Positions 1 through 19,026 of a stretch of 33,251 bases of DNA are shown here, one piece after another. The position numbers and the translations under genes were made by a program. Position 1 is the stretch's first letter. Each line of letters begins with the position of its first letter. A model generated the notes under the pieces. That model was not told where the DNA came from and did no database searches. It saw only the letters and a list, made by a program, of their open reading frames with translations. The stretch lies in NCBI RefSeq assembly GCF_000003605.2, contig NW_003134623.1, positions 1 through 33,251 on the forward strand, written 5' to 3'. This DNA is from Saccoglossus kowalevskii (Eukaryota; Hemichordata; Enteropneusta; Harrimaniidae).

Positions 1-935
1 GACAATTCGAAACACTTTCAGACATTAAATGGCCGCCAATTCGAATAAAATTCAAATGATCCCAGTAGTCGAGTGATCATGTGATGGACCTGGCACAAAA
101 GTTAAGATCAATAGAGCGTGCCTCGTAATTGCATGGGAGACTACTTGAGCTAACAAGCTTGTTAAATACATTTTTTTTTGGGTTCCGAAACAAACATGGA
201 AAAGACATAAAGTATTTTTTTGTATTTTTATTATTGAAATATAACACCTTTATAGTAGAAAGTCGTGCTGGTTATTTTGATAATTTAAGTTTATAGAAAG
301 TTTAAAAATTTGCACGTATTTTCAATGCACAACTTCCGCTTGCGGTCTGCTATAGTGGATGTCAGCTATTGAAAATGCGTACAAAGCTGTACAAAGTGAG
401 TGCAAAGTTGGTAGAATAGCGTGTATGTTTGAACTAAGTTGTTGTCATATCTAACCGTAAAATTATAAAGTACGGAAAGTGAATAAAATGCAATTGAACG
501 TCTCGTTTATTAGAATAGTGCCCTATGAGCTTACCGTAGCATGTTCTAAAGCATCCTAAAACGATAGGAAAAGCATTGGAAAAGTAGGTGAGTTTGCTAA
601 TACATTTTACCTAAGTCATTGTAATATCGACAACACGGTTAAAAATATAGTAAAATGGGCAAATGTTTTGAAAAAGTCTTATACATTAGCAGATTATACC
701 ACTATGAATCCGTGAAATGATTAACAAACTGATTACAAAGTATTGAAAAGTGGTTGCAAAGTTAGCAAATTTACATGGAAATGTGACCTATGTTATTATA
801 TTATGAGACCCATAGTTAAATATTAGGAAATTTAAAGTGAATTAATATGTCGTAAATGGCCGTTTACTCACGTACTGACTTTCGAAGCATGGATAGGTCA
901 TAGGTCAACTTACGAAAGAAACACGTGATACGAAT
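1..935 (+). repeat. Satellite unit 1 (935 bp, cassette B with A-type end)
   Basis: Full-length unit. It has a 5-bp insertion near 831-835 (AGGAAATTTAAAGTG where other units read AGGAAAAGTG). The cassette is type B (AACACGG, GTAAAATGGGC) but ends with the A-type GAATCCGTG, so it looks recombinant. CTATTGAAA and AACTTCC are shared with unit 22. Confidence 0.95.
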
Positions 936-937
936 GA

Positions 938-980
938 CAATTCGAAACACTTTCAAACATTAAATGGCCGCCAATTCGAA
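938..980 (+). repeat. Short direct repeat CAATTCGAA x2 in each unit head
   Basis: CAATTCGAA occurs at 938-946 and again at 972-980, 34 bp apart, in unit 2 and in most other units. The core TTCGAA is self-complementary. This may be a remnant of an older duplication inside the monomer. Confidence 0.6.
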
Positions 981-1085
981 TAAAATTCAAATGATCCCAG
1001 TAGTCGAGTGATCATGTGATGGACCTGTCACAAAAGTTAAGATCAATAGGGCGTGCCTCGTAATTACATAAGAGACCACTTGAAC

Positions 1086-1099
1086 TAACAAGCTTGTTA
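1086..1099. repeat. 14-bp perfect palindrome with AAGCTT core (representative copy)
   Basis: TAACAAGCTTGTTA equals its own reverse complement. It recurs at the same offset (about 150) in most units. Units 5, 6, 7, 9, 21, 34 and 36 read AAGGTT, unit 35 reads AAAGTT, units 8, 11 and 33 differ on the right arm, and units 19 and 30 read AAGTTT. The intact form contains a HindIII site, so a HindIII digest would release a ladder based on about 930 bp. Confidence 0.85.
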
Positions 1100-1100
1100 A

Positions 1101-1180
1101 ATACATTTTTTTTTGGTTCCGAAACAAACATGGAAAAGACATAAAGTATTTTTTTGTATTTTTATTATTGAAATGTAACA
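1101..1180 (+). other. T-rich island of the monomer (representative copy)
   Basis: A run of 9 T (1106-1114) precedes GGTTCCGAAAC and is followed by a second T-rich stretch ending in TATTATTG. The first run varies among units (about 5-10 T, or a T-then-G run in units 9, 21, 34 and 35). It is the most length-variable site in the repeat. Long T tracts generally disfavour nucleosomes, so this could be a regularly spaced linker or nucleosome-free spot; that is inference. Confidence 0.6.
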
Positions 1181-1312
1181 CCTTTATAGCAGAAAGTCGT
1201 GCTGGTTATTTTGATAATTTAAGTTTATAGAATGTTTATAAATTTGCACGTATTTTCAATGCACAATTCCCTCTTGCGGTCGGCTATAGTGGATGTCAGC
1301 TATTAAAATTGC

Positions 1313-1341
1313 GTACAAAGCTGTACAAAGTGAGTGCAAAG
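1313..1341 (+). repeat. CAAAG cluster with small inverted repeat GTACA-AAGC-TGTAC
   Basis: GTACAAAGCTGTAC (1313-1326) has 5-bp complementary arms around a 4-base loop. CAAAG occurs three times at about 10-11 bp spacing. A related cluster lies about 356 bp downstream (TACAAAGTAGTGAAAAG). The two clusters mark homologous positions of the internal ~178-bp subrepeats. Confidence 0.6.
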
Positions 1342-1826
1342 TTGGTAGAATAGCGTGTATGTTTGAACTAAGTTGTTTTCATATCTAACCGTAAAATTAT
1401 AAAGTACGGAAAGTGAATAAAATGCAAGTGAACGTCTCGTATATTAGAATAGTGCCCTATGAGCTTACCGTAGCATGTTCTAAAACATCCTAAAACGATA
1501 GGAAAAGCGTTAGAAAAGTAGGTGGGTTTGCTAATACATTTTACGTAAGTCATTGTAATATCGACCCCACAGTTAAAAATATAGAAAAAAATGAGCAAAT
1601 GTGCTGAAAAAGCCTCATATATTAGCAGATTATACCACTATGAATCCGTGAAATGACAAACAAACTGATTACAAAGTAGTGAAAAGAGGTTGCAAAGTTA
1701 GCAAAAATACATGGAAATGTGACCTATGTTGTTATACCATCGACACCCATAGTTAAATGTTAGGAAAAGTGAATTAATATGTCGTAAATGGCCGTTTACT
1801 AACGTACTGACTTTTGAAACATGGAT

Positions 1827-1839
1827 AGGTCATAGGTCA
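1827..1839 (+). promoter_or_regulatory. AGGTCA-T-AGGTCA direct repeat (DR1-like), representative copy
   Basis: Two perfect AGGTCA half-sites are separated by one base. This matches the DR1 consensus bound by animal nuclear receptors of the RXR/USP and HNF4 type. It is intact (spacer T or G) at 25 of 36 unit ends by my reading. A simple 7-bp tandem duplication (ATAGGTC twice) would give the same sequence. Binding is untested and assumes an animal host. Confidence 0.35.
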
Positions 1840-1853
1840 ATTTACGAAAGACA

Positions 1854-1859
1854 CACGTG
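1854..1859. promoter_or_regulatory. CACGTG hexamer near the unit junction, representative copy
   Basis: CACGTG lies 14 bp downstream of the AGGTCA pair. It is present at every complete unit end except unit 8 (CACGTA). CACGTG is the classic E-box/G-box bound by bHLH proteins. Near-invariance is notable, but functional binding is inference. Confidence 0.35.
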
Positions 1860-1867
1860 AAACGAAT

Positions 1868-2796
1868 GACAATTCGAAACACTTTCAAACATTAAATGGC
1901 CGCCAATCGATTAGAAATCAAATGATCCCAGTAGTCGTTTGATCATGTGATGCACCTGTCACAAAAGTTAAGATCAATAGGGCGTGCCGCGTAATTGCAT
2001 GGGAGACTACTTGAGCTAACAAGCTTGTTAAATACATTATTTTTGGTTCCGAAACAAAACATGGAAAAGACATAAAGTATTTTTTTGTATTTTTATTATT
2101 GAAATGTAACACCTTTAAGCAGAAAGTCGTGCTGGTTATTTTGATAATTTAAGTTTATAGAATGTTTAAAAAATTGCACGTATTTTCAATGCACAACTCC
2201 CTCTTGCGGTCGGCTATAGTGGATGTCAGCTATTAAAATTGCGTACAAAACTGTACAAAGTGAGTGCAAAGTTGGTAGAATAGCGTGTATGTTTGAACTA
2301 AGTTGTTGTCATATCTAACCGTAAAATTATAAAGTACGGAATGTGAATAAAATGCAAGTGAACGTTTCGTATATTAGAATAGTGCCCTATGAGCTTACCG
2401 TAGCATGTTCTAAAACATCCTAAAACGATAGGAAAAGCATTAGAAAAGTAGGTGGGTTTGCTAATACATTTTACCTAAGTCATTGTAATATCGACCCCAC
2501 AGTTAAAAATATAGAAAAAATGAGCAAATGTGTTGGAAAAGCCTCATATATTAGCAGATTATACCACTACGAATCCGTGAAATGATAAACAAACTGATTA
2601 CAAAGTAGTGAAATGTGGTTGTAAAGTTAGCAAAATTACATGGAAATGTGACCTATGTTGTTATATTATCGGCATCCATAGTTAAATGTTAGGAAAAGTG
2701 AATTAATATGCCGTAAATGGCCGTTTACTAACGTACTTACTTTCGAAGCATGGATAGGTCATAGGTCAACTTACGAAAGACACACGTGATACGAAT
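1868..2796 (+). repeat. Satellite unit 3 (929 bp, cassette A)
   Basis: The head is unusual: CCAATCGATTAGAAATC replaces the common CCAATTCGAATAAAATTC, followed by TCGTTTGATC and ATGCACCTG. The T tract is interrupted (ATTATTTTTGG). Cassette A. The head resembles the GAATTGAAATC type of units 6, 9, 21 and 34. Confidence 0.95.
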
Positions 2797-3729
2797 GACA
2801 ATTCGAAACACTTTCAAACATTAAATGGACGCCAATTCGAATAAAATTCAAATGATCGCAGTAGTCGAGTGATCATGTGATGGACCTGTCACAAAAGTTA
2901 AGATCAATAGGGCGTGCCTCGTAATTGCATGGGAGACTACTTGAGCTAACAAGCTTGTTAAATACATTTTTTTTTGGTTCCGAAACAAACATGGAAAAGA
3001 CATTAAGTATTTATTTTGTATTTTTGTTATTGAAATGTAACACCTTTATAGCAGAAAGTCGTGCTGGTTATTTTGATAATTTAAGTTTATCGAATGTTTA
3101 AAAATTTGCACGTATTTTCAATGCACAACTCCCTCTTGCGGTCGGCTATAGTGGATGTCAGCTATTAAAATTGCGTACAAAGCTGTACAAAGTGAGTGCA
3201 AAATTGGTAGAATAGCGTGTATGTTTGAACTAAGTTGTTGTCATATCTAACCGTAAAATTATAAAGTATGGAAAGTGAATAAAATGCAAGTGAACGTCTC
3301 GTATATTAGAATAGTGCCCTATGAGCTTACCGTAGCATTTTCTAAAACATCCTAAAACGATAGGAAAAGCATTAGAAAAGTAGGTGGTTTTGCTAATACA
3401 TTTTACCTAAGTCATTGTAATATCGACAACACGGTTAAAAATATAGAAAGAAACGAACAAAGGTGTTGGAAAAGTCTTATACATTAGCAGATTATACCAC
3501 TATGAAACCGTGAAATGATAAACAAACTGATTACAAAGTAGTGAAAAGTAGTTGTAAAGTTAGCAAAATTACATGGAAATGTGACCTATGTTGTTATATT
3601 ATCGACACCCATAGTTAAATGTTAGGAAAAGTGAATTAATATGTCGTAAATGGCCGTTTACTGACGTACTGACTTTCGAAGCATGGATAGGCCATAGGTC
3701 AACTTACGAAAGACACACGTGATACGTAT
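2797..3729 (+). repeat. Satellite unit 4 (933 bp, cassette B2-like)
   Basis: Full-length unit. The cassette reads AACACGGTT then GAAAGAAACGAACAAAGG, a divergent form of B2. Private changes include GGACGCCAATTC, TGATCGCAG and TATTTATTTTG. One AGGTCA half-site is broken (AGGCCA). Confidence 0.95.
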
Positions 3730-4652
3730 GACAATTCGAAACACTTTCAAAGATTAAATGGCCGCCAATTCGAATAAAATTCAAATGATCCCAGTAGTCG
3801 TGTGATCATGTGATGGACCTGTCACAAAAGTTAAGATCAATAGGGCGTACCTCGTAACTGCATGGGAGACTACTTGAGCTAACAAGGTTGTTAAATACAT
3901 TTTTTTTTGGTTCCGAAACAAACATGGAATACTTAAAGTATTTTTTTGTATTTTTATTATTGAAATGTAACACCTTTATAGCAGAAAGTCGTGCTGGTTA
4001 TTTTGATAATTTAAGTTTATAGAATGTTTAAAAATGTGCACGTAGTTTCAATACACAACTCCCTCTTGCGGTCGGCTATAGTGGATGTCAGCTATTAAAT
4101 TGCGTACAAAGCTGTACAAAGTGAGTGCAAGTTGGTAGATAGCGTGTATGTTTGAACTAAGTTGTTGTCATATTTAACCGTAAATTATAAGTACGGAAAG
4201 TGAATAAAATGCAAGTGAACGTCTCGTATATTAGAATAGTGCCCTATGAGCTTACCGTAGCATGTTCTAAAACATCCTAAAACGATAGGAAAAGCGTTGG
4301 AAAATTAGGTGGGTTTGCTAATACATTTTACCTAAGTCATTGTAATATCGACCCCACAGTTAAAAATATAGTAAAATGGGCAAATGTGTTGGAAAAGTCT
4401 TATACATTAGCAGATTATACCACTATGAAACCGTGAAATGATAAACAAACTGATTACAAAGTAGTGACAAGTAGTTGTAAAGTTAGCAAAATTACATGGA
4501 AATGTGACCTATGTTGTTATATTATTGAGACCCATAGTTAAATGTTAGGAAAAGTGAATTAATATATCGTAAATGGCCGTTTACTAACGTACTGACTTTC
4601 GAAGCATGGATAGGTCATAGGTCAACATACCGAAGACACACGTGAAACGAAT
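3730..4652 (+). repeat. Satellite unit 5 (923 bp, hybrid cassette A to B)
   Basis: The middle carries the TGGAATAC and GTGCACGTAG haplotype also seen in units 7, 8, 25 and 36. The cassette starts as A (CCCCACAGTT) and switches to B (GTAAAATGGGC, GTCTTATAC, GAAACCGTG). Five single-base losses in A runs lie between about 4096 and 4193; these plus the 2-bp TGGAATAC form account for the short length. Confidence 0.95.
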
Positions 4653-5318
4653 GACAATTCGAAACACTTTCAAACATTAAATGGCCGCCAATTCGAATTG
4701 ATATCAAATGATCCCAGTAGTCGTGTGATCATGTGATGGACCTGTCACAAATGTTAAGATCAATAGGGCGTGCCTCGTAATTGCATGGGAGACTACTTGA
4801 GCTAACAAGGTTGTTTGAACTAAGTTGTTGTCATATCTAACCGTAAAATTATAAAGTACGGAAAGTGAATAAAATGCAAGTGAACGTCTCGTATATTAGA
4901 ATAGTGCCCTATGAGCTTACCGTAGCATGTTCTAAAACATCCTAAATCGATAGGAAAATCGTTAGAAAATTAGGTGGGTTTGTTAATACATTTTACCTAA
5001 GTCATTGTAATACCGACCCCACAGTTAAAAATATAGAAAAAATGAGCAAATGTGTTGGAAAAGCCTCATATATTAGCAGATTATACCACTATGAATCCGT
5101 GAAATGATTAACAAACTGATTACAAAGTAGTGAAAAGTGGTTGCAAAGTTAGCAAAATTACTTGGAAATGTGACCTATGTTGTTATATTATCGACGCCCA
5201 TACTTAAATGTTAGGAAAAGTGAATTAATATGCCGTAAATGGCCGTTTACTAACATACTGACTTTCGAAGCATGGATAGGTCATAGGTCAACTTACGAAA
5301 GACACACGTGATACGAAT
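4653..5318 (+). repeat. Satellite unit 6, internally deleted (666 bp, cassette A)
   Basis: About 264 bp are missing: the sequence passes directly from AACAAGGTTGTT to TTGAACTAAG. The T-rich island and the first part of the internal subrepeat region are lost. The head is of the GAATTGATATC, GTCGTGTGATC and AAGGTT type. Confidence 0.95.
4809..4818 (+). other. Deletion junction of unit 6
   Basis: The left partner ends AAGGTTGTT(AAATAC) and the right partner is (GTA)TGTTTGAAC, so TGTT is shared at the joint. This is a 4-bp microhomology, typical of slippage or end joining. Confidence 0.8.
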
Positions 5319-6005
5319 GACAATTCGAAACACTTTCAAACATTAAATGGCCGCCAATTCGAATAAAATTCAAATGATCCCAGTAGTCGAGTGATCATGT
5401 GATGGACCTGACACAAAAGTTAAGATCAATAGGGCGTGCCTCGTAATTGCATGGGAGACTACTTGAGCTAACAAGGTTGTTAAATACATTTGTTTTTGGT
5501 TCCGAAACAAACATGGAATACGTAAAGTATTTTTTTGTATTTTTATTATTGAAATGTAACACCTTTATAGCAGAAAGTCGTGCTGGTTATTTTGATAATT
5601 TAAGTTTATAGAATGTTTAAAAATGTGCACGTAGTTTCAATGCACAACTCCCTCTTGCGGTCGGGTTTGCTAATACATTTTACCTAAGTCATTGTAATAT
5701 CGACCCCACAGTTACAAATATAGAAAAAATGAGCAAATGTGCTGGAAAAGCCTCATATATTAGCAGATTATACCACTATGAATCCGTGAAATGACAAACA
5801 AACTAATTACAAAGTAGTGAAAAGTGGTTGCAAAGTTAGCAAAATTACATGGAAATGTGACCTATGTTGTTATATTATTGATACCCATAGTTAAATGTTA
5901 GGAAACGTGAATTAATATGTCGTAAATAGCCGTTTACTAACGTACTGACTTTCGAAGCATGGATAGGTCATAGGTCAACTTACGGAAGACACACGTGATA
6001 CGAAT
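5319..6005 (+). repeat. Satellite unit 7, internally deleted (687 bp, cassette A)
   Basis: About 243 bp are missing: GCGGTCGG is joined to GTTTGCTAATAC. The retained T-island is of the TGGAATAC and GTGCACGTAG haplotype. The 3' third (AACTAATTAC, GATACCCATAG, GTAAATAGCCG) is nearly identical to unit 8. Confidence 0.95.
5660..5667 (+). other. Deletion junction of unit 7
   Basis: The left side is ...GGTCGG and the right side is ...GGTGGGTTTGC in intact units. Only a short GG identity overlaps. The breakpoints differ from those in neighbouring unit 6, so the two deletions were separate events. Confidence 0.8.
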
Positions 6006-6206
6006 GACAATTCGAAACACTTTCAAACATTAAATGGCCGCCAATTCGAATAAAATTCAAATGATCCCAGTAGTCGAGTGATCATGTGATGGACCTGGCA
6101 CAAAAGTTAAGATCAATAGGGCGTGCCTCGTAATTGCATGGGAGACTACTTGAGCTAACAAGCTAGTTAAATACATTTTTTTTTGGTTCCGAATCAAACA
6201 TGGAAT

Positions 6207-6380
6207 ACATAAAGTATTTTTTTGTATTTTTATTATTGAAATGTAACACCTTTATAGCAGAAAGTCGTGCTGGTTATTTTGATAATTTAAGTTTATAGAA
6301 TGTTTAAAAATGTGCACGTAGTTTCAATGCACAACTCCCTCTTGGGGTCGGCTATAGTGGATGTCAGCTATTAAAATTGC
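6207..6380 (+). repeat. Tentative ~174-bp subrepeat S0 inside the monomer
   Basis: AAAGTA at 6211 and GGTTATTTTGAT at 6272 fall about 170-174 bp before the equivalent positions in S1. Similarity is weak and AT-rich, so this copy is suggestive only. Confidence 0.3.
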
Positions 6381-6558
6381 GTACAAAGCTGTACAAAGTG
6401 AGTGCAAAGTTGGTAGAATAGCGTGTATGTTTGAACTAAGTTGTTGTCATATCTGACCGTAAAAATTATAAAGTACGGAAAGTGAATAAAATGCAAGTGA
6501 ACGTCTCGTATATTAGAATAGTGCCTTATGAGCTTACCGTAGCATGTTCTAAAGCATC
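6381..6558 (+). repeat. ~178-bp subrepeat S1 inside the monomer
   Basis: The segment begins GTACAAAGCTGTACAAAGTG. Ungapped comparison of the first 70 bases gives 47 matches with S3 (offset 356) and 41 with S2 (offset 178), by hand count. Later, GTCTCGTATATTAG (6503) matches GCCTCATATATTAG in S2 (6680), 177 bp on. Confidence 0.65.
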
Positions 6559-6736
6559 CTAAAACGATAGGAAAAGCATTGGAAAAGTAGGTGGGTTTGC
6601 TAATACATTTTACCTAAGTCATTGTAATATCGACCCCACAGTTAAAAATATAGAAAAAATGAGCAAATGTGCTGGAAAAGCCTCATATATTAGCAGATTA
6701 TACCACTATGAATCCGTGAAATGACAAACAAACTAA
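6559..6736 (+). repeat. ~178-bp subrepeat S2 inside the monomer
   Basis: Key match: CCTAAGTCATTGTAATATCG at 6613 aligns with CCTATGTTGTTATATTATTG in S3 at 6791, exactly 178 bp later. CCCACAGTTAAA then matches CCCATAGTTAAA. The A/B cassette lies in this subrepeat. Confidence 0.65.
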
Positions 6737-6909
6737 TTACAAAGTAGTGAAAAGTGGTTGCAAATTTAGCATAATTACATGGAAATGTGACCTATGTTGT
6801 TATATTATTGATACCCATAGTTAAATGTTAGGAAACGTGAATTAATATGTCGTAAATAGCCGTTTACTAACGTACTGACTTTCGAAGCATGGATAGGTCA
6901 TAGGTCAAC
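6737..6909 (+). repeat. ~175-bp subrepeat S3 inside the monomer
   Basis: It begins TTACAAAGTAGTGAAAAGTG. TAGGAAACGTGAATTAATATG aligns with TACGGAAAGTGAATAAAATG of S1 at an offset of about 355. It contains the AGGTCA direct repeat near its end. Confidence 0.65.
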
Positions 6910-7135
6910 TTACGAAAGACACACGTAAAACGAATGACAATTCGAAACACTTTCAAACATTAAATGGCCGCCAATTCGAATTGAAATTAAATGATCCCAG
7001 TAGTCGTGTGATCATGTGATGGACCTGTCACAAAAGTTACGATCAATAGGGCGTGCCTCGCAATTGCATGGGAGACTACTTGAGCTAACAAGGTTGTTAA
7101 ATACATTTTTTGGGGGTTCCGAAACAAATATGGAA
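6910..7135 (+). repeat. Tentative fifth subrepeat S4 spanning the unit 8/9 junction
   Basis: TTACGAAAG at 6910 follows TTACAAAG at 6737 by 173 bp, in phase with S0-S3, but the segment is about 50 bp longer and alignment is poor. If it is real, the monomer is a degenerate pentamer. Confidence 0.25.
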
Positions 7136-7864
7136 AAGACATAAAGTATTTTTTTGTATTTTTATTATTGAAATGTAACACCTTTATAGCAGAAAGTCGT
7201 GCTGGTTATTTTGATAATTTAAGTTTATAGAATGTTTAAAAATTTGCTCGTATTGTCAATGCACAACTCCCTCTTGCGGTCGGCTATAGTGGATGTCAGC
7301 TATAAAAATTGCGTACAAAGCTGTACAAAGTGAATGCAAAGTTAGTAGAATAGCGTGTATGTTTGAACTAAGTTGTTGTCATATCTAACCGTAAAATTAT
7401 AAAGTACGGAAAGTGAATAAAATGCAAGTGAACGTCTCGTATATTAGAATAGTGCCCTATGAACTTACCGTAGCATGTTCTAAAACATCCTAAAACGATA
7501 GGAAAAGCGTTAGAAAATTAGGTGGGTTTGCTAATACATTTTACCTAAGTCATTGTAATATCGACAACACGGTTAAAAATATAGAAAAAATGAGCAACAG
7601 TGTTGGAAAAGTCTTATACATTAGCAGATTATACCACTATGAAACCGTGAAATGATAAACAAACTGATTACAAAGTAGTGAAAAGTAGTTGTAAAGTTAG
7701 CAAAATTACATGGAAATGTGACCTATGTTGTTATATTATCGACACCCATAGTTAAATGTTAGGAAAAGTGAATTAATATGTCGTAAATGGCCGTTTACTA
7801 ACGTACTGACTTTCGAAGCATAGATAGGTGAGGTAAACTTACGAAAGACACACGTGAAACGAAT
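6936..7864 (+). repeat. Satellite unit 9 (929 bp, cassette B2)
   Basis: The head is of the GAATTGAAATTAAATG, GTCGTGTGATC and AAGGTT type, with the T run replaced by TTTTTTGGGGGTTCC; units 21 and 34 share this. The middle (TTTGCTCGTATTGTC, GTGAATGCAAAGTTAG) is shared with adjacent unit 10. The AGGTCA pair is broken. Confidence 0.95.
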
Positions 7865-8794
7865 GGCAATTCGAAACACTTCCAAAGATTAAATGGCCGC
7901 CAATTCGAATAAAATTCAAATGATCCCAGTAGTCGAGTGATCATGTGATGGACATGTCACAAAAGTTAAGATCAATAGGGCGTGCCTCGTAACTGCATGG
8001 GAGACTACTTGAGCTAACAAGCTTGTTAAATACATTTTTTTTTTGGTTCCGAAACAAACATGGAAAAGACATGAAGTATTTTTTTGTATTTTTATTATTG
8101 AAATGTTACACCTGTATAGCAGAAAGTCGTGCTGGTTATTTTGATAATTTAAGTTTATAGAATGTTTAAAAATTTGCTCGTATTGTCAATGCACAACTCC
8201 CTCTTGCGGTCGGCTATAGTGGATGTCAGCTATAAAAATTGCGTACAAAGCTGTACAAAGTGAATGCAAAGTTAGTAGAATAGCGTGTATGTTTGAACTA
8301 AGTTGTTGTCATATCTAACCGTAAAATTATAAAGTACGGAAAGTGAATAAAATGCAAGTGAACGTCTCGTATATTAGAACAGTGCCCTATGAACTTACCG
8401 TAGCATGTTCTAAAACATCCTAAAACGATAGGAAAAGCATTAGAAAAGTAGGTGGGTTTGCTAATACATTTTACCTAAGTCATTGTAATATCGACAACAC
8501 GGTTAAAAATATAGAAAAAATGAGCAAAGGTGTTGGAAAAGTCTTATACATTAGCAGATTATACCACCATGAAACCGTGAAATGATAAACAAACTGATTA
8601 CAAAGTAGAGAAAAGTAGTTGTAAAGTTAGCAAAATTACATGGAAATGTGACCTATGTTGTTATATTATCGACACCCATAGTTAAATGTCAGGAAAAGTG
8701 AATTAACATGTCGTAAATGGCCGTTTACTAACGTACTGATTTTCGAAGCATGGATAGGTCATAGTCAACTTACGAGAGACACACGTGATACGAT
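7865..8794 (+). repeat. Satellite unit 10 (930 bp, cassette B2)
   Basis: It begins GGCAATTCG instead of GACAATTCG. The middle block from about 8173 to 8400 repeats that of unit 9 almost exactly. One G is lost in the second AGGTCA half-site (CATAGTCAAC). Confidence 0.95.
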
Positions 8795-9720
8795 GACATT
8801 CGAAACACTTCCAAAGATTAAATGTCCGCCAAGTCGAAAAAATTCAAGTGATCCCAGTAGTCGAGTGATCATGTGATGGGCCTGTTACAAAAGTAAGATC
8901 TATCGGGCGTGGCTAGTAAATGCACGGGAGACTACTTGAGCTAACAAGCTGGTGAAATACATTTTTTTGGTTCCGAAACAAACATGGAAAAGACATAACG
9001 CATTTTTTTGTATTTTTATTATTGAAATATAACACCTTTATAGTAGAAAGTCGTGCTGGTTATTTTGATAATTTAAGTTTATAGAATGTTTAAAAATTTG
9101 CACGTATTTTCAATGCACAACTCCCTCTTGCGGTCGGCTATAGTGGATGTCAGCTATTAAATTTGCGTACAAAGCTGTACAAAGTGAGTGCAAAGTTGGT
9201 AGAATAGCGTGTATGTTTGAACTAAGTTGTTGTCATATCTAACCGTAAAATTATAAAGTACGGAAAGTGAATAAAATGCAAGTGAACGTCTCGTATATTA
9301 GAATAGTGCCCTATGAGCTTACCGTAGCATGCTCTAAAACATCCTAAAACGATAGGAAAAGCAATAGAAAAGTAGGTGGTTTTGCTAATACATTTTACCT
9401 AAGTCATTCTAATGTCGATAACACGGTTAAAAATATAGAAAAAATGAGCAAAGGTGTTGGAAAAATCTTATACATTAGCAGATTATACCACTATGAAACC
9501 GTGAAATGGTAAACAAACTGATTACAAAGTAGAGAAAAGTAGTTGTAAAGTTAGCAAAATTACATGGAAATGTGACCTATGTTGTTATATTATCGACACC
9601 CATAGTTAAATGTTAGGAAACGTGAATTAATATGCCGTAAATGGCCGTCTACAAACGAACTGACTTTCGAAGCATGGATAGGTCATAGGTCAACTTACGA
9701 AAGACACACGTGAAACGAAT
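8795..9720 (+). repeat. Satellite unit 11, divergent head (926 bp, cassette B2)
   Basis: The first ~230 bases carry a rare linked set: GATGGGCCTGTTAC, GATCTATCGGGCGTGGCTAG, GCTGGTGAAATAC and GACATAACGCATT. Only unit 33 shares it, 20,474 bp away. The rest of the unit is ordinary. Confidence 0.95.
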
Positions 9721-10652
9721 GACAATTGGAAACACTTACAAACATTAAATGGCCGCCAATTCGAATAAAATTCAAATGATCCCAGTAGTCGAGTGATCAT
9801 GTGATGGACCTGTCACAAAAATTAAGATCAATAGGGCGTGCCTCGTAATTTCATGGGAGACCACTTGAGCTAACAAGCTTGTTAAATACATTTTTTTTTT
9901 GGTTCCGAAACAAACATGGAAAAGACATAAAGTATTTTTTTGTATTTTTATTATTGAAATGTAACACCTTTATAGCAGAAAGTCGTGCTTGTTATTTTGA
10001 TAATTTAAGTTTATAGAATGTTTAAAAATTTGCACGTATTTTCAATGCACAACTCCCTTATGTGGTCGGCTATAGTGGATGTCAGCTATTAAAATTGCGT
10101 ACAAAGCTGTACAAAGTGAGTGCAAAGTTTGTAGAATAGCGTCTATGTTTGAATTAAGTTGTTGTCATATCTAACCGTAAAATTATAAAGTACGGAAAGT
10201 GAATAAAATGCAAGTGAACGTCTCGTATATTAGAATAGTGCCCTATGAGCTTACCGTAGCATGTTCTAAAACATCCTAAATCGATAGGAAAAGCATTAGA
10301 AAAGTAGGTGGTTTTGCTAATACATTTTACCTAAGTCATTGTAATATCGACAACAAGGTTAACAATATAGAAAAAATGAGCAAAGGTGTTGGAAAAGTCT
10401 TATACATTAGCAGATTATACCACTATGAAACCGTGAAATGATAAACAAACTGATTACAAAGTAGTGAAAAGTAGTTGTAAAGTTAGCAAAATTACATGGA
10501 AATGTGACCTATGTTGTTATATTATCGACACCCATAGTTAAATGTCAGGAAAAGTGAATTAATATGTCGTAAATGGCCGTTTCATAACGTACTGACTTTC
10601 GAAGCATAGATAGGTCAGAGGTCAACTTCCGAAAGACACACGTGAAACGAAT
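9721..10652 (+). repeat. Satellite unit 12 (932 bp, cassette B2)
   Basis: Full-length unit. Private changes are GACAATTGGAAAC, CTTATGTGGTCGG, GCGTCTATG and GAATTAAG. The cassette is B2 with AACAAGGTTAAC. It ends with the AGGTCAGAGGTCA spacer variant. Confidence 0.95.
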
Positions 10653-11582
10653 GACAATTCGAAACACTTCCAAAGATTAAACGGCCGCCAATTCGAATAA
10701 AATTCAAATGATCCCAGTAGTCAAGTAATCGTGTGATGGACATGTCACAAAAGTTAAGATCAATAGGGCGTGCCTCGTAATTGCATGGGAGACTACTTGA
10801 GCTAACAAGCTTGTTAAATACATTTTTTTTTGGTTCCGAAACAAACTTGGAAAAGACAGAAAGTATTTTTTTGCATTTTTTTTATTGAAATGTAACACCT
10901 TTATAGCAGAAAGTCGTGCTGGTTATTTTGATAATTTAAGTTTATAAAATGTTTAAAATTTGCACGTATTTTCAATGCACAAATCCATCTTGCGGTCGGC
11001 TATAGTGGATGTCAGCTATAAAAAATTGCGTACAAAGCTGTACAAAGTGAGTGCAAAGTTGGTAGAATAGCGTGTATGTTTGAACTAAGTTGTTGTCATA
11101 TCTAACCGTAAAATTATAAAGTACGGAAAGTGAATAAAATGCAAGTGAACGTCTCGTATATTAGAAATAGTGCCCTATGAGCTTACTGTAGCATGTCTAA
11201 AACATCCTAAAACGATAGGAAAAGCATTAGAAAAGTAGGTGGTTTTGCTAATACATTTTACNTAAGTCATTGTAATATCGACAACACGGTTAAAAATATA
11301 GAAAAAATGAGCAAAGGTGTTGGAAAGTCTTATACATTAGCAGATTATACCTCTATGAAACCGTGAAATGATAAACAAACTGATTACAAAGTAGTGAAAA
11401 GTAGTTGTAAAGTTAGCAAAATTACATGGAAATGTGACCTATGTTGTTATATTATTGACACCCATAGTTAAATGTTAGGAAAAGTGAATTAATATGTCGT
11501 TAATGACCGTTTACTAACGTACTGACATCCGAAGCATAGATAGGTCAGAGGTCAACTTACGAAAGACACACGTGAAGCGAAT
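10653..11582 (+). repeat. Satellite unit 13 (930 bp, cassette B2, contains N)
   Basis: The head reads AAACGGCCGCC, GTCAAGTAATCGTG and GACATGTC, shared with units 15, 16 and 27. An undetermined base lies at 11262. A base is lost in GCATGTCTAAAAC. Confidence 0.95.
11262..11262. other. Undetermined base (N)
   Basis: TTTTACNTAAGTC; other units have C here, rarely T or G. It is the only ambiguity code seen and marks an unresolved position in the consensus. Confidence 0.99.
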
Positions 11583-12512
11583 GACAATTCGAAACACTTC
11601 CAAAGGTTAAATGGCCGCCAATTCGAATAAAATTCAAATGATCCCAGTAGTCGAGTTATCATGTGATGGACATGTCACAAAAGTTAAGATCAATAGGGCG
11701 TGCCTCGTAATTGCATGGGAGACTGCTTGAGCTAACAAGCTTGTTAAATACATTTTTTTGGGTTCCAAAACAAACATGGAAAAGACATAAAGTATTTTTT
11801 TGAATTTTTATTATTGAAATGTAACACCTTTATAGCAGAAAGTCGTGCTGGTTATTTTGATAATTTAAGTTTATAGAATGTTTAAATATTTGCACGTATT
11901 TTCAATGCACAACTCCCTCTTGCGGTCGGCTATAGTGGATGTCAGCTATTAAAATTGCGTACAAAGCTGTACAAAGTGAGTGCAAAGTTGGTAAAATAGC
12001 GTGTATGTTTGAACTAAGTTGTTGTCATATCTAACCGTAAAATTATAAAGTACGGAAAGTGAATAAAATGCAAGTGAACGTCTCGTATATTAGAATAGTG
12101 CCCTATGAACTTACCGTAACATGTTCTAAAACATCCTAAAACGATAGGAAAAGCATTAGAAAAGTAGGTGGGTTTGCTAATACATTTTACCTAAGTCATT
12201 GTAATATCGACCCCACAGTTAAAAATATAGAAAAAATGAACAAATGTGTTGGAATAGCCTCATATATAAGCAGATTATACCACTATGAATCCGTGAAATG
12301 ATAAACAAACTGATTACAAAGTAGTGGTAAGTAATTGTAAAGTTAGCAAAATTACATGGAAATGTGACCTATGTTGTTATATTATCGACACCCATAGTTA
12401 AATATCAGGAAAAGTGAATTAATATGTCGTAAATGGCCGTTTACTAGCGTACTGACTTTCGAAGCATAGATAAGTCAGAGGTCAACTTACGAAAGACACA
12501 CGTGAAACGAAT
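11583..12512 (+). repeat. Satellite unit 14 (930 bp, cassette A)
   Basis: This A unit stands among B2 units. It shares GGTTCCAAAACAAAC, TTTAAATATTTGC, GTTGGAATAGCC, AAATATCAGG, TTACTAGCG and GATAAGTCAGAGG with unit 26, 12 units (11,165 bp) downstream. Confidence 0.95.
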
Positions 12513-13443
12513 GACAATTCGAAACACTTCCAAAGATTAAACGGCCGCCAATTCGAATAAAATTCAAATGATCCCAGTAGTCAAGTAATCGTGTGATGGA
12601 CATGTCACAAAAGTTAAGATCAATAGGGCGTGCCTCGTAATTGCATGGGAGAATACTTGTGCTAACAAGCTTGTTAAATACTTTTTTTTTTGGTTCCGAA
12701 AAAAACATGGAAAAGACATAAAGTATTTTTTTGTATTTTTATTATTGAAATGTAACTCCTTTATAGCAGAAAGTCGTGCTGGTTATTTTGATAATTTAAG
12801 TTTATAGAATGTTTAAAAATTTGCACGTATTTTCAATGCACAACTCCCTCTTGCGGTCGGCTATAGTGGATGTCAGCTATTAAAATTGCGTACAAAGCTG
12901 TACAAAGTGAGTGCAAAGTTGGTAGAAGAGCGTGTATGTTTGAACTAAGTTGTTGTCATATCTAACCGTAAAATTATAAAGTACGGAAAGTGAATAAAAT
13001 GCAAGTGAACGTCTCGTATATTAGAATAGTGCCCTATGAGCTTACCGTAGCATGTTCTAAAACATCCTAAAACGATAGGAAAAGCATTAGAAAAGTAGGT
13101 GGTTTTGCTAATACATTTTACCTAAGTCATTGTAATATCGACAACACGGTTAAAAATATAAAAAAAATGAGCAAAGTTGTTGAAAAAGTCTTATACATTA
13201 GCAGACTATACCACTATGAAACCGTGAAATGATAAACAAACTGATTACAAAGTAGTGAAAAGTAATTGTAAAGTTAGCAAAATTACATGGAAATGTGACC
13301 TATGTTTTTATATTATCGACACCCATAGTTAAATATCAGGAAAAGTGAATTAATATGTCGTAAATGGCCGTTTGCTAGCGTACTGACTTTCGAAGCATAG
13401 ATAAGTCAGAGGTCAACTTACGAAAGACACACGTGAAACGAAT
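12513..13443 (+). repeat. Satellite unit 15 (931 bp, cassette B2)
   Basis: The head is nearly identical to unit 16, including GAGAATACTTGTGC and AAATAC followed directly by a 10-T run. It shares GAAAAAAACATGG and GTAGAAGAGCG with unit 28. Confidence 0.95.
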
Positions 13444-14376
13444 GACAATTCGAAACACTTCCAAAGATTAAACGGCCGCCAATTCGAATAAAATTCAAAT
13501 GATCCCAGTAGTCAAGTAATCGTGTGATGGACATGTCACAAAATTTAAGATCAATAGGGCGTGCCTCGTAATTGCATGGGAGAATACTTGTGCTAACAAG
13601 CTTGTTAAATACTTTTTTTTTTGGTTCCGAAACAAACATGGAAAAGACATAAAGTATTTTTTTGTATTTTTATTATTGAAATGTAACACCTTTATAGCAG
13701 AAAGTCGTGCTGGTTATTTTGATAATTTAAATTTATAGAATGTTTAAAAATTTGCACGAATTTTCAATGCACAACTCCCTCTTGCGGTCGGCTATAGTGG
13801 ATGTCAGCTATAAAAATTGCGTACAAAGCTGTACAAAGTGAGTGCAAAGTTGGTAGAATAGCGTGTATGTTTGAACTAAGTTGTTGTCATATCTAACCGT
13901 AAAATTATAAAGTACGGAAAGTGAATAAAATGCAAGTGAACGTCTCGTATATTAGAATAGTGCCCTATGAGCTTACCGAAGCATGTTCTAAAACATTATA
14001 AAGCGATAGGAAAAGCATTAGAAAAGTAGGTGGTTTTGCTAATACATTTTACTTAAGTCATTGTAATATCGACAACACGGTTAAAAATATAGAAAAAACG
14101 AGCAAAGGTGTTGGAAAAATTCTTATACATTAGCAGATTATACCACTATGAAACCGTGAAATGATAAACAAACTGATTACAAAGTTGTGAAAAGTAGTTG
14201 TAAAGTTAGCAAAATTACATGGAAATGTGACCTATGTTGTTATATTATCGACAGCCCATAGTTAAATGTTAGGAAAAGTGAATTAATATGTCGTAAATGG
14301 CCGTTTACTGACGTACTGACTTTCGAAGCATGGATAGGTCATAGGTCAACTTACGAAAGATACACGTGATACGTAT
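13444..14376 (+). repeat. Satellite unit 16 (933 bp, cassette B2)
   Basis: The head copies unit 15. From about 13975 (ACCGAAGCATG, AACATTATAAAG) to the unit end it is nearly identical to unit 28, including GACAGCCCATAG and AGATACACGTGATACG. Confidence 0.95.
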
Positions 14377-15307
14377 GACAATTCGAAACACTTTCAAACA
14401 TTAAATGGCCGCCAATTCGAATAAAATTCAAATGATCCCAGTAGTCGGGTGATCATGTGATGAACCTGTCACAAAAGTTAAGATCAATAGGGCGTGCCTC
14501 GTAATTGCATGGGAGACTACTTGAGCTAACAAGCTTGTTAAATACATTTTTTTTTGGTTCCAAAACAAACATGGAAAAGACATAAAGTATTTTTTTTGTA
14601 TTTTTATTATTGAAATGTAACACCTTTTTAGCAGAAAGTCGTGCTGGTTATTTTGATAAATTAAGTTTATAGAATGTTTAAAAATTTGCACGTATTTTCA
14701 ATGCACAACTCCCTCTTGCGGTCGGCTATAGTGGATGTCAGCTATTTAATTTGCGTACAAAGCTGTACAAAGTGAGTGCAAAGTTGGTAGAATAGCGTGT
14801 ATGTTTGAACTAAGTTGTTGTCATATCTAACCGTAAAATTATAAAGTACGGAAAGTGAATAAAATGCAAGTGAACGTCTCGTATATTAGAATAGTGCCCT
14901 ATGAGCTAACCGTAGCATGTTCTAAAATATCCTAAAACGATAGGAAAAGCATTAGAAAAGTAGGTGGGTTTGCTAATACATTTTACCTAAGTCATTGTAA
15001 TATCGATAACACAGTTAAAAATATAGTAAAATGGGCAAATGTGTTGAAAAAGTCTTATACATTAGCAGATTATACCACTATGAAACCGTGAAATGATAAA
15101 CAAACTGATTACAAAGTAGTGAAAAGTAGTTGTAAAGTTAGCAAAATTACATGGAAATGTGACCTATGTTGTTATATTATTGAGACCCATAGTTAAATGT
15201 TAGGAATGGTGAATTAATATGTCGTAAACGGCCGTCTACTAACGAACTGACTTTCGAAGCATGTATATGTCATAGGTCAACTTACGAAAGACACACGTGA
15301 AACGATT
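14377..15307 (+). repeat. Satellite unit 17 (931 bp, cassette B)
   Basis: The head (GTCGGGTGATC, GATGAACCTG, TTCCAAAACAAAC) matches unit 29, 11,161 bp away. The cassette is B with ATAACACAGTT. The tail CTACTAACGAACTG, GCATGTATATGTC is shared with unit 18. Confidence 0.95.
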
Positions 15308-16238
15308 GACAATTCGAAACACTTTCAAACATTAAATGGCCGCCAATTCGAATAAAATTCAAATGATACCAGTAGTCGAGTGATCATATGATGGACCTGT
15401 CACAAAAGTTAAGATTAATAGGGCGTGCCTCGTAATTGCATGGGAGACTACCTGAGCTAACAAGCTTGTTAAATACATTTTTTTTTGGTTCCGAAACAAA
15501 CATGGAAAAGACATAAAGTATTTTTTTGTATTTTTGTTATTGAAATGTAACACCTTTATAGCAGAAAGTCGTTCTCATTATTTTGATAATTTAAGTTTAT
15601 AGAATGTTTAAAAATTTGCACGTATTTTCAATGCACAACTCCCTCTTGCGGTCGGCTATAGTGGATGTCAGCTATTAAAATTGCGTACAAAGCTGTACAA
15701 AGTGAGTGCAAAGTTGGTAGAATAGCGTGTATGTTTGAACTAAGTTGTTGTCATATCTAACCGTAAAATTATAAAGTACGGAAAGTGAATAAAATGCAAG
15801 TGAACGTCTCGTATATTAGAATAGTGCCCTATGAGCTTACCGTAGCATGTTCTAAAACATCCTAAAACGATAGGAAAAGCATTAGAAAAGTAGGTGGGTT
15901 TGCTAATACATTTTAGCTAAGTCATTGTAATATCGACCCCACAGTTAAAAATATAGAAAAAATGAGCAAATGTGTTGGAAAAGCCTCATATATTAGCAGA
16001 TTATACCACTATGAATCCGTGAAATAATAAACAAACTGATTACAAAGTAGTGAAAAGTGGTTGTAAAGTTAGCAAAATTACATGGAAATGTGACCAATGT
16101 TGTTATATTATTGAGACCCATAGTTAAATGTTAGGAAAAGTGAATTAATATGTCGTAAATGGCCGTCTACTAACGAACTGACTTTCGAAGCATGTATATG
16201 TCATAGGTCAACTTACGAAAGACACACGTGAAACGAAT
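15308..16238 (+). repeat. Satellite unit 18 (931 bp, cassette A)
   Basis: Full-length unit with cassette A. It has a private change, GTCGTTCTCATTATT, where other units read GTCGTGCTGGTTATT. The tail copies unit 17. It has no obvious counterpart between units 29 and 30, although its neighbours do. Confidence 0.95.
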
Positions 16239-17167
16239 GACAATTCGAAACACTTTCAAACATTAAATGGCCGCCAATTCGAATAAAATTCAAATAATCC
16301 CAGTAGTCGCGTGATCATGTGATGGACCTGTCACAAAACCTAAGATCAATAGGGCGTGCCTCGTAATTGCATGGAAGACCACTTGAGCTAACAAGTTTGT
16401 TAAATACATTTTTTTTGGTTCCGAAACAAACATGGAAAAGACATAAAGTATTTTTTTGTATATTTATTATTGAAATGTACCACCTTTATAGCAGAAAGTC
16501 GTGCTGGTTATTTTGATAATTTAAGTTTATAGAATGTTTAAAAATTTGCACGTATTTTCAATGCACAACTCCCTCTTGCGGTCGGCTATAGTGGATGTCA
16601 GTTATTAAAATTGAGTTCAAAGCTGTACAAAGTGAGTGCAAAGTTGGTAGAATAGCGTGTATGTTTGAACTAAGTTGTTGTCATATCTAACCGTAAAATT
16701 ATAAAGTATGGAAAGTGAATAAAATGCAAGTGAACGTCTCGTATATTAGAATAGCGCCCTATGAGTTTACCGTAGCATGTTCTAAAACATCCTAAAACGA
16801 TAGGAAAAGCGTTAGAAAATTAGGTGGGTTTGCTAATACATTTTACCTAAGTCATTGTAATATCGAGAACACGGTTAAAAATATAGTAAAATGGGCAAAT
16901 GTGTTGGAAAAGTCTTATACATTAGCAGATTATACCACTATGAAACCGGGAAATGAAAAACAAACTGCATACAAAGTAGTGAAAAGTAGTTGTAAAGTTA
17001 GCAAAATTACATGGAAATGTGAAGTATGTTGTTATATTATTGATACCCATAGTTAAATGTTAGGAAACGTGAATTAATATGTCGTAAATGGCCGTTTACT
17101 AACGTACTGACTTTCGAAGCATGGATAGGTCATAGGTCAACTTACGAAAGACACACGTGATACGAAT
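16239..17167 (+). repeat. Satellite unit 19 (929 bp, cassette B)
   Basis: The linked rare set TCGCGTGATC, CAAGTTTGTTAAATAC, GTATATTTATTATTG, GTACCACC, TTGAGTTCAAAG and ATAGCGCCC is shared with unit 30, 11 units (10,233 bp) away. Confidence 0.95.
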
Positions 17168-18096
17168 GACAATTCGAAACACTTTCAAACATTAAATGGC
17201 CGCGAATTCGAATAAAATTCAAATGATCCCAGTAGTCGAGTGATCATGTGATGGACCTGTCACAAAAGTTAAGATCAATAGGGCGTGCCTCGTAATTACA
17301 TGGGAGACTACTTGAGCTAACAAGCTTGTTAAATACATTTTTTTTGGTTCCGAAACAAACATGGAAAAGACATAAAGTATTTTTTTGTATTTTTATTATT
17401 GAAATGTAACACCTTTATAGAGGAAAGTCGTGCTGGTTATTTTGATAATTTTAGTTTATAGAATGTTTAAAAATGTGCACGTAGTTTCAATGCACAACTC
17501 CCTCTTGCGGTCGGCTATAGTGGATGTCAGCTATTAAAATTGCGTACAAAGCTATACAAAGTGAGTGCAAAATTGGTAGAATAGCGTTTATGTTTGAAGT
17601 AAGTTGTTGTCATATCTAACTGTAAAATTATAAAGTACGGAAAGTGAATAAAATGCAAGTGAACGTCTCGTATATTAGAAATAGTGCCCTATGAGCTTAC
17701 CGTAGCATATTCTAAAGCATCCTAAAACGATAGGAAAAGCATTGGAAAAGTAGGTGGGTTTGCTAATACATTTTACCTAAGTCATTGTAATATCGACAAC
17801 ACGGTTAAAAATATAGTAAAATGGGCAAATGTGTTGGAAAAGTCTTATACATTAGCAGATTATACCACTATGATACCGTGAAATGATAAACAAACTGATT
17901 ACAAGTAGTGAAAAGTAGTTGTAAAGTTAGCAAAATTACATGGAAATGTGACCTATGTTGTTATATTATCGACACCCATAGTTAAATGCTAGGAAAAGTG
18001 AATTAATATGTCGTAAATTACCGTTTACTAACGTACTGACTTTCGAAGCATGGATAGGTCATAGGTCAACTTACGAAAGACACACGTGAAACGAAT
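17168..18096 (+). repeat. Satellite unit 20 (929 bp, cassette B)
   Basis: Hybrid middle: TGGAAAAGAC (common type) is followed by GTGCACGTAG (TGGAATAC haplotype). GGCCGCGAATTCG creates an EcoRI site absent from most units. TTTATAGAGGAAAG is private. Confidence 0.95.
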
Positions 18097-19026
18097 GACA
18101 ATTCGAAACACTTTCAAACATTAAATGGCCGCCAATTCGAATTGAAATCAAATGATCCCAGTGGTCGTGTGATCATGTGATGGACCTGTCACAAAAGTTA
18201 AGATCAATAGGGCGTGCCTCGTAATTGCATGGGAGACTACTTGAGCTAACAAGGTTGTTAAATACATTTTTTGGGGGTTCCGAAACAAACATGGAAAAGA
18301 CATAAAGTATTTTATTGTATTTTTATTATTGAAATGTAACACCTTTATAGCAGAAAGTCGTGCTGGTTATTTTGATAATTTAAGTTTAAAGAATGTTTAA
18401 AAATGTGCAGGTATTTTTAATGCACAACTCCCTCTTGCGGTCGGCTATAGTGGATGTCAGCTATTAAAATTGCGTACAAAGCTGTACAAAGTGAGTGCAA
18501 AGTTGGTAGAATAGCGTGTATGTTTCAACTAAGTTGTTGTCATATCTAACCGTAAAATTATAAAGTACGGAAAGTGAATAAAATGCAAGTGAACGTCTCG
18601 TATATTAGAATAGTGCCCTATGAGCTTACCGTAGAATGTTCTAAAGCATCCTAAAACGATAGGAAAAGCATTGGAAAAGTAGGTGGGTTTGCTAATACAT
18701 TTTACCTAAGTCATTGTAATATCGACAACACGGTTAAAAATATAGTAAAATGGGCAAATGTGTTGGAAAAGTCTTATACATTAGCAGATTATACCACTAT
18801 GATACCGTGAAATGATAAACAAACTGATTACAAAGTAGTGAAAAGTAGTTGTAAAGTTAGCAAAATTACATGGAAATGTGACCTATGTTGTTATGATATT
18901 GAGACCCACTGTTAAATGTTAGGAAAAGTTAAGTAATATGTCGTAAATGCCCGTTTACTGACGTACTGACTTTCGAAGCATGGATAGGTCATAGGTCAAC
19001 TTACGAAAGACACACGTGAAACGAAT
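18097..19026 (+). repeat. Satellite unit 21 (930 bp, cassette B)
   Basis: The head is of the GAATTGAAATC, CAGTGGTCGTGTGATC and AAGGTT type with a T-then-G run, shared with unit 34 (13 units on) and unit 9 (12 units back). TATTTTATTGTAT and GTTTAAAGAATG recur in unit 35. Confidence 0.95.

What the first reader, a model, noticed from the sequence alone, without database searches (positions are those of the whole stretch)
6207..7135. Nested periodicity: the 930-bp monomer is built from ~175-178-bp subrepeats
Three consecutive segments of unit 8 (6381, 6559, 6737) align at 178-bp steps. By hand count S1/S3 share 47 of their first 70 bases and S1/S2 share 41 of 70, ungapped. Later blocks (GTCTCGTATATTAG against GCCTCATATATTAG; TACGGAAAGTGAAT against TAGGAAACGTGAAT) keep the phase. 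Two further segments (S0, S4) fit weakly, giving about five subunits per monomer. This suggests an old nucleosome-sized satellite that became a higher-order repeat and was then amplified as the new unit.
Basis: partly seen in the sequence, partly recalled or inferred. Interest (0 to 1): 0.72.

Follow-up and report, generated by a model that had tools for sequence, protein, structure and literature searches.

The report
Satellite built on dead 5S gene
The 930-bp repeat that fills this contig does contain three old 178-bp copies of one segment, but another part of it is a decayed 5S ribosomal RNA gene, and a sister repeat in the same genome mostly keeps the docking site of that gene's switch protein although the gene around it is gone.

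Summary
Self-alignment of the monomer consensus scores 101 at offset ~178 and 75 at ~355; 12 shuffles peak at 33. There are three subrepeats, not five: an S1-S3 profile finds nothing in the other 400 bp. Those hold a degenerate 5S rRNA gene: against the host's own 5S it scores 56, reached by 0 of 10,000 shuffles (best 39; Gumbel p 2e-9). The register is ungapped, and a T9 run starts at the second base after the gene. rRNA pairing is gone (16 of 39 pairs, 14.8 expected), while the promoter region is enriched (35/48 versus 27/71). A sister 942-bp family (about 3,200 copies), 68% identical along the monomer, shares the three subrepeats. Its consensus keeps 5S positions 62-91 (intermediate element plus C-box core, TFIIIA sites) 30/30, the rest 34/89; one of two contigs chosen without the promoter carries a 25-26/30 variant in 4 of 5 monomers. 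The triplication predates the family split. The window's family (at most about 250 copies) has 25/30. 5S-derived satellites are known; this composite form looks like a new variant.

The parts
1..33251 (+). Array of the 930-bp satellite filling the whole contig (36 full monomers between 132 and 33105, plus two partial ends)
   Evidence: Anchor spacing; the window is contig G000:C2645:1-33251
6137..7066 (+).
6364..6544 (+). Subrepeat S1 in unit 8
   Evidence: Consensus 230-409 mapped to unit 8
6545..6718 (+). Subrepeat S2 in unit 8
   Evidence: Consensus 410-583
6719..6895 (+). Subrepeat S3 in unit 8
   Evidence: Consensus 584-760
6986..7104 (+). Degenerate 5S rRNA gene, in ungapped register with host 5S positions 1-119 (this copy ends in unit 9); both gene ends are at chance similarity
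   Evidence: family consensus 62/119, next best register 46/119
7035..7082 (+). Relic of the 5S internal control region (A box, intermediate element, C box; 5S positions 50-97)
   Evidence: Family consensus matches host 5S 35/48 versus 27/71 elsewhere, Fisher p 2e-4
7047..7076 (+). Counterpart of the 30-bp block (5S 62-91) that is identical to host 5S in the consensus of the 942-bp sister family
   Evidence: Family consensus 25/30 here, 30/30 in the sister family
7106..7114 (+). T-run starting at the second base after the 5S register (T9 in the consensus, TTTTTTGGG in this copy): terminator relic
   Evidence: a run of 5 or more T starting within 3 nt follows 1.9% of monomer positions
4784..5449 (+). 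Short monomer (666 bp) lacking about 264 bp, including the T-run and the start of S1
   Evidence: MAFFT places the gap at consensus 5-269, by eye the joint is near 33/297
5450..6136 (+). Short monomer (687 bp) lacking 242 bp (consensus 216-457); the deletion is not a multiple of 178

Best explanation
This is a non-coding satellite of a 572-Mb eukaryotic genome whose monomer contains a degenerate 5S rRNA gene (promoter relic plus T-run) and a long spacer in which a 178-bp segment was triplicated long ago. Shown: the 5S homology, the three subrepeats, the sister family, the order triplication then family split, and decay of linkage across the monomer. Inferred: the unit descends from a 5S rDNA-like repeat; its 5S part stopped being selected as rRNA but was kept for a time as a binding or promoter element. 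The sister family still mostly keeps the TFIIIA core (IE plus C-box core) and most likely still binds TFIIIA, perhaps with pol III. The window's family has lost visible constraint there and is now mainly passive repeat DNA, kept uniform by exchange of short tracts (gene conversion is the likeliest form) between monomers on the same and other contigs, with little sign of local turnover of whole monomers.
For: 5S homology: score 56 versus a best of 39 in 10,000 dinucleotide shuffles of 5S, Gumbel p 2e-9, reversed 5S 18; ungapped register 62/119, next best 46, mean 28.1, sd 4.7. Over 5S 18-97 the match is 53/80 against 15-25 in eleven other registers. The 5S used is the host's own (RF00001 hits of 105-113 bits). 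T-run in place. rRNA structure lost: 16/39 pairs in this family, 15/39 in the sister, 14.8 and 15.3 expected (pairs from an RNAfold model of host 5S). Sister family: 68% over 918 aligned positions; 30/30 at 5S 62-91 and 34/89 elsewhere, Fisher 1.5e-10; mismatch to its own consensus 2.7% in the block and 8.9% outside, 20 monomers; the block falls among the 0.6% least diverse 30-bp windows. Genome counts: promoter probe 3,225 against 2,959 for an S3 probe that does not touch the promoter, so the promoter is not rare in that family. Triplication before the split. Mean linkage r2 falls from 0.31 (<50 bp) to 0.037 (150-200 bp), shuffled 0.006-0.011; adjacent monomers 94.9% identical, monomers on different contigs 94.7%.
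Against: Rfam gives no hit to the monomer at E up to 5 (3 kb) or 10 (261 bp). Within the window's family the promoter region is not more conserved than the rest: window rank 0.44 with 36 monomers, 0.58 with 125. Variants at 5S-mismatching sites do not return to the 5S base more often than in wrong registers: 66/145 (46%) against 24-60%. The 20 sister monomers came from contigs found through the promoter. Nine promoter sites from two contigs chosen instead by the S3 probe, and picked because they were missing from the capped list of exact promoter matches, give 29, 29, 30 and 29 of 30 on C879 but 26, 26, 26, 25 and 30 on C1067, where the block is no better kept than its flanks. The spacer resembles neither host 5S spacer type. 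No transcription or binding data exist here.
Confidence: 0.76

Rival explanations
1. One reading: an old ~175-bp nucleosome-sized satellite became a five-unit higher-order repeat that was re-amplified as the 930-bp unit; the 5S resemblance is incidental.
For: Three real 178-bp subrepeats older than the family split.
Against: S0 and S4 do not match; 5S homology at p 2e-9 in the remainder and a 30/30 block in the sister consensus; no free 178-bp array among the 40 of 955 candidates scored.
Confidence: 0.07
2. The 5S part came from a 5S-derived SINE (SINE3-like, name recalled) or another pol III retroelement caught in a satellite and amplified with it.
For: Only the middle of the 5S is recognisable while both gene ends are at chance (3/17 and 6/22), as expected of a SINE head; an LTR element has also inserted into this satellite (L060).
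Against: The T-run sits where the end of a full 119-nt gene would put it and the register is ungapped; tandem 5S-type repeats are abundant in the genome.
Confidence: 0.12
3. The 62-91 block of the sister family is kept by recurrent gene conversion from real 5S genes rather than by selection for a bound protein.
For: Exchanged tracts within the window's family are short. On C1067 one monomer of five has 30/30 beside four with 25-26/30, which would fit a corrected copy.
Against: In the 20 sister monomers read the letters next to the block differ from 5S on both sides, in the indel copy once its indel is allowed for, so no longer imported tract is seen; the window's family is not being corrected (25/30).
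Confidence: 0.22

Closest known systems
PcP190 satellite DNA of hyloid frogs (PMC11675491: abstract, introduction, section 3.5 and discussion read; PMC4201667: two passages read)
   Same: Tandem satellite with a segment about 70% similar to host 5S (here 77.6% over 49 bp, and 66% over 5S 18-97), on contigs separate from true 5S, spacer unlike the 5S spacers; origin from 5S rDNA proposed.
   Different: PcP190 is ~190 bp with a 120-bp conserved region like the whole transcribed 5S; here the monomer is 930-942 bp, holds a 3 x 178-bp triplication, and only the middle of the 5S is recognisable.
5SHindIII-DNA of the fish Hoplias malabaricus (PMC2713275: passages read)
   Same: Tandem satellite with a partial 5S segment (95 bp) and a spacer.
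   Different: 360 bp, spacer similar to the true 5S spacer, centromeric by FISH; here no similarity to the two host 5S spacer types was found and chromosomal position is unknown.
5S rDNA-derived satellite of the Plantago lagopus B chromosome (title seen in reference lists only)
   Same: Satellite derived from 5S rDNA.
   Different: Details not seen.
5S arrays of Tribolium freemani with satellite DNA and Jockey-like elements (PMC11202950: abstract in part and passages read)
   Same: 5S sequence, satellite arrays and retrotransposons interleaved.
   Different: There 5S rRNA genes sit beside satellite DNA; here the gene is dead and part of the monomer.
Alpha satellite with CENP-B box (recalled, not looked up)
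   Same: A short protein-binding box in a drifting satellite monomer.
   Different: Different protein and sequence; no binding or centromere evidence here.

Membership tests
5S rDNA-derived satellite DNA | Tandem arrays of a homogenised monomer | tested here: met
   36 monomers in the window; 125 of 800-1000 bp on seven contigs, about 94.7% identical
5S rDNA-derived satellite DNA | A monomer segment homologous to the host 5S gene | tested here: met
   score 56, 0 of 10,000 shuffles reach it
5S rDNA-derived satellite DNA | Distinct from functional 5S genes (separate arrays, rRNA structure not maintained) | tested here: met
   The 47 best of 18,217 RF00001 candidates lie on C3485, C2212 and C3801, none of the satellite contigs read; 16/39 rRNA pairs kept, chance level
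5S rDNA-derived satellite DNA | Heterochromatic or (peri)centromeric location | not testable with these tools
   Contigs carry no chromosome assignment
Functional 5S rRNA gene array | 5S rRNA secondary structure maintained | tested here: not met
   16/39 pairs (14.8 expected); the 216-bp family C consensus keeps 39/39
Canonical higher-order repeat of one short satellite | The whole unit is tiled by diverged copies of the short monomer | tested here: not met
   Three copies cover 531 of 931 bp; no profile match in the other 400 bp
5S-derived SINE | Dispersed copies with target-site duplications and a tail | not tested
   Only pattern counts were made
Protein-box satellite (CENP-B-box type) | Short box conserved above the monomer background | tested here: inconclusive
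   Sister family: mismatch 2.7% in the box and 8.9% elsewhere in 20 promoter-found monomers, but 25-26/30 in 4 of 5 monomers of C1067. In the window's family not above background
Protein-box satellite (CENP-B-box type) | The protein binds the box in vivo | not testable with these tools
   No binding data

The most novel reading that the evidence does not exclude
Satellites of this genome carry a 'TFIIIA box': the binding core of the 5S gene's specific factor was freed from the rRNA gene and is kept by selection inside drifting satellite monomers, doing a structural job (clustering repeats with 5S loci, driving pol III transcripts that seed heterochromatin, or phasing chromatin), while the window's family is a branch in which the box is decaying. 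That would give a within-genome pair (about 3,200 copies with the box, at most about 250 without it intact) for what a protein box does for satellite copy number and homogenisation.
Probability: 0.27. Interest if true: 0.8.

Novelty: new variant of a known kind. Interest (0 to 1): 0.56.

Why it matters
Satellites derived from 5S genes are known, but what keeps their 5S part conserved is unsettled: the PcP190 authors say the satellite's role remains to be established and favour recombination with 5S rDNA over transcription as the reason for its conserved and variable halves (PMC11675491, introduction and discussion). Here rRNA structure is lost and the conserved part shrinks to the TFIIIA sites, which separates selection for the RNA from selection for a DNA-bound protein. 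Two sister families in one genome, one with the block mostly intact and one without, make the question testable. The linkage decay also indicates that uniformity here comes from exchange of tracts of the order of 100 bp.

Tried and rejected
Five subrepeats: rejected. Rfam search of the monomer: no hit. ARAGORN: no tRNA in the window. First 5S test with three remembered 5S sequences: two of three beat their 500 shuffles (38 against a best of 29; 35 against 28), the third did not (33 against 38); replaced by the host's own 5S. 'Variants restore the 5S base': 14 of 28 with 36 monomers, but 66/145 with 125 monomers lies inside the range of wrong registers; dropped. Promoter conservation inside the window's family: not above background. 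Exchange among S1-S3 inside the monomer: no clear pattern in which allele matches the paralogues. True 5S spacer as source of the monomer's spacer: nothing better than E 1.5 outside the 5S part. Search of paper texts for an 11-base 5S string to name the species: eight papers, none on 5S by title; species not named. Literature: TFIIIA with satellite DNA and 5S rDNA, one paper; satellite DNA with pol III and internal promoter, two; 5S with subrepeats and higher-order, one; none describes a TFIIIA-core satellite in its title or abstract start, the part I saw. Not answered because the machine stayed busy: a scan for further families. Rows dropped: two short monomers from the 125-monomer set by the 800-1000 bp filter, and likewise units of 686, 1416 and 1861 bp; incomplete 5S copies from family C (30 complete ones used).

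Full report
What is there. The window is one whole contig (G000:C2645) of a 572,110,611-base assembly in 4,830 contigs, filled by one tandem repeat: 36 full monomers, 34 of 920-938 bp and two of 666 and 687 bp, mean pairwise identity 94.7%. TRF does not report the array because its longest period is 500.

The observation. Self-alignment of the 931-bp consensus gives 101 at offset ~178 and 75 at ~355; 12 dinucleotide shuffles peak at 26-33. S1, S2 and S3 span consensus 230-760 and are 62-65% identical with gaps. S0 and S4 are not supported as subrepeats.

The other 400 bp. At the joint of two monomers I noticed strings like the control boxes of the 5S rRNA gene. Rfam gives no hit. The host's own 5S genes do: they lie on three contigs with RF00001 hits of 105-113 bits, in units of about 1.1 and 1.6 kb. 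Local score 56, ungapped over 74 bp, 0 of 10,000 shuffles reach it (best 39), Gumbel p 2e-9. In ungapped register the consensus matches 62/119 (next best register 46; mean 28.1, sd 4.7). By region: 1-17 3/17, 18-49 18/32, 50-97 35/48, 98-119 6/22; a T9 run starts at the second base after position 119, and a T-run that close follows 1.9% of positions. Of 39 base pairs in an RNAfold model of host 5S, 16 are kept, 14.8 expected from composition. So it is a dead rRNA gene whose internal control region decayed least (Fisher p 2e-4). Box limits (A 50-64, IE 67-72, C 80-97) and the statement that IE and C box interact with TFIIIA are from PMC3342222 (passages).

Genome context. A pattern for this family's promoter relic, up to 3 mismatches, counts 250 sites, reversed control 0; some may be sister-family variants, which can lie 3 mismatches away, so 250 is closer to a ceiling. 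Ten stretches (94.7 kb) on six further contigs are the same array almost end to end. A looser 5S promoter pattern counts 8,146 sites, reversed control 0, in arrays of several periods. Two further kinds were read. Family C, 216 bp (C111, C404, C242; 30 complete copies): its consensus is a second 5S type with nine substitutions, 39/39 pairs kept and three double compensations, though single copies are decayed; 3,205 sites match its 46-base promoter pattern within 3 mismatches, which can include true 5S. Family B, ~942 bp (C324, C389, C482, C525; 20 monomers, spacing unbroken inside the stretches read): 3,225 sites for a promoter-plus-flank probe and 2,959 for an S3 probe outside the promoter; the two probes hit 19 and 20 of the 20 B monomers and 0 of 125 A monomers.

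Family B is the sister of the window's family A. The consensuses align over 918 positions at 68%. B has the same three subrepeats (S1/S3 82/120, S2/S3 98/148, S1/S2 74/109). A six-sequence tree pairs S1A-S1B (0.945), S2A-S2B (0.90) and S3A-S3B (0.99), so the triplication came first. The B consensus matches host 5S 62-91 30/30, but 1-17 3/17, 18-49 13/32 and 98-119 8/22; Fisher 1.5e-10 for the block against the rest. Mismatch to the B consensus is 2.7% in the block and 8.9% outside; of 20 monomers (both ends of each taken together) 8 have no change, 10 one, one two and one, with an indel, four. The letters next to the block differ from 5S on both sides in these monomers, the indel copy allowed for. 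rRNA pairs in B: 15/39, 15.3 expected. In A the block is 25/30; units 10 and 32 and one monomer in L060 carry a form closer to 5S. The C-box core 80-91 is 12/12 in both consensuses.

Limits. The 20 B monomers came from contigs found through the promoter. A small check without it, nine sites on two contigs chosen by the S3 probe and by absence from the capped exact-match list, gave 29, 29, 30, 29 on C879 and 26, 26, 26, 25, 30 on C1067. Within A the region is no more conserved than the rest, so for A I claim past constraint only. An early hint that variants revert to 5S letters failed its control.

How arrays stay uniform. Among 125 monomers on seven contigs, 37 sites have a minor allele of 15% or more. 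Mean r2 is 0.31 below 50 bp, 0.16 at 50-100, 0.09 at 100-150, 0.04 at 150-200 and 0.011 at 450 and over; shuffled 0.006-0.011. Adjacent monomers (94.9%, 118 pairs), other same-contig pairs (94.7%, 1,153) and different-contig pairs (94.7%, 6,479) are almost equally alike. This fits exchange of short tracts between monomers; whether the contigs are one array or several is unknown. The two deletions in the window (about 264 and 242 bp) are not multiples of 178.

What it most likely does. The window's family is best read as passive satellite DNA with a decaying promoter. The sister family most likely still binds TFIIIA; whether pol III follows is open, since the A box is 10/15 in both consensuses. 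Nothing here measures binding or transcription.

Relation to known systems. 5S-derived satellites exist in frogs (PcP190, about 70% similar to 5S; PMC11675491), fish (5SHindIII-DNA, 360 bp with a 95-bp 5S segment; PMC2713275) and a plant B chromosome (title only). This belongs with them by tandem organisation, 5S homology and separation from true 5S. It differs in monomer size, the nested triplication and the shrinking of the recognisable 5S part to the middle of the gene. My searches, seen as listings with a few papers opened in part, showed no TFIIIA-core satellite; they cover open-licence papers only.

Noticed in passing
L060 (G000:C2777:1-8000), 3272-6158: About two satellite monomers (3789-5640) lie between two 97.3%-identical 518-bp direct repeats that look like LTRs, with frames matching DUF1759 and DUF5641 outside them in the same orientation (BEL/Pao-like; that name is recalled). 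Both joints sit at the same satellite position with a shared CGGAA, as if one insertion into the satellite was later amplified in tandem with two monomers; a circle or an assembly error is not excluded.
   Followed up: partly
L063, L064, L066 (216-bp arrays): A second 5S rRNA type whose consensus differs from the 1.1/1.6-kb-unit 5S at nine sites and keeps all 39 modelled base pairs with three double compensations; thousands of copies, many decayed, with some 118-bp spacings. It may be an oocyte-type 5S (guess).
   Followed up: partly
G000:C1067, promoter sites near 4997-7950 (L071-L074): Four of five sister-family monomers read share a block variant at 25-26/30, while the next one (L075) is 30/30: an array caught losing or regaining the block.
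   Followed up: partly
G000:C994:192105-192132: An exact S3 probe of the sister family inside a contig of at least 192 kb, the only one listed there: a possible isolated copy outside the arrays.
   Followed up: no
L010, spacer of the 1,580-bp 5S units: The spacer of one true 5S type also seems to contain internal tandem subrepeats of about 60 bp (by eye in the sequence printed).
   Followed up: no
window 13806-13849 and four similar places; L061 342-394 and 2237-2289: TRF finds a 21-bp tandem pair at the start of S1 in the window, and 21-bp and 10-bp (GTGCAAAGTT) repeats at the corresponding place of the sister family: a third level of periodicity near two helical turns.
   Followed up: no
window consensus 49-409: The region from after the T-run to the end of S1 varies less (about 2%) than S2 (4.6%) and S3 (3.3%) across 125 monomers; the reason is unknown.
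   Followed up: no
window units 7 and 36, 16 and 28, 14 and 26: Distant monomers are 97.8-98.8% identical, above the 94.7% background, hinting at past segmental duplication inside the array.
   Followed up: no
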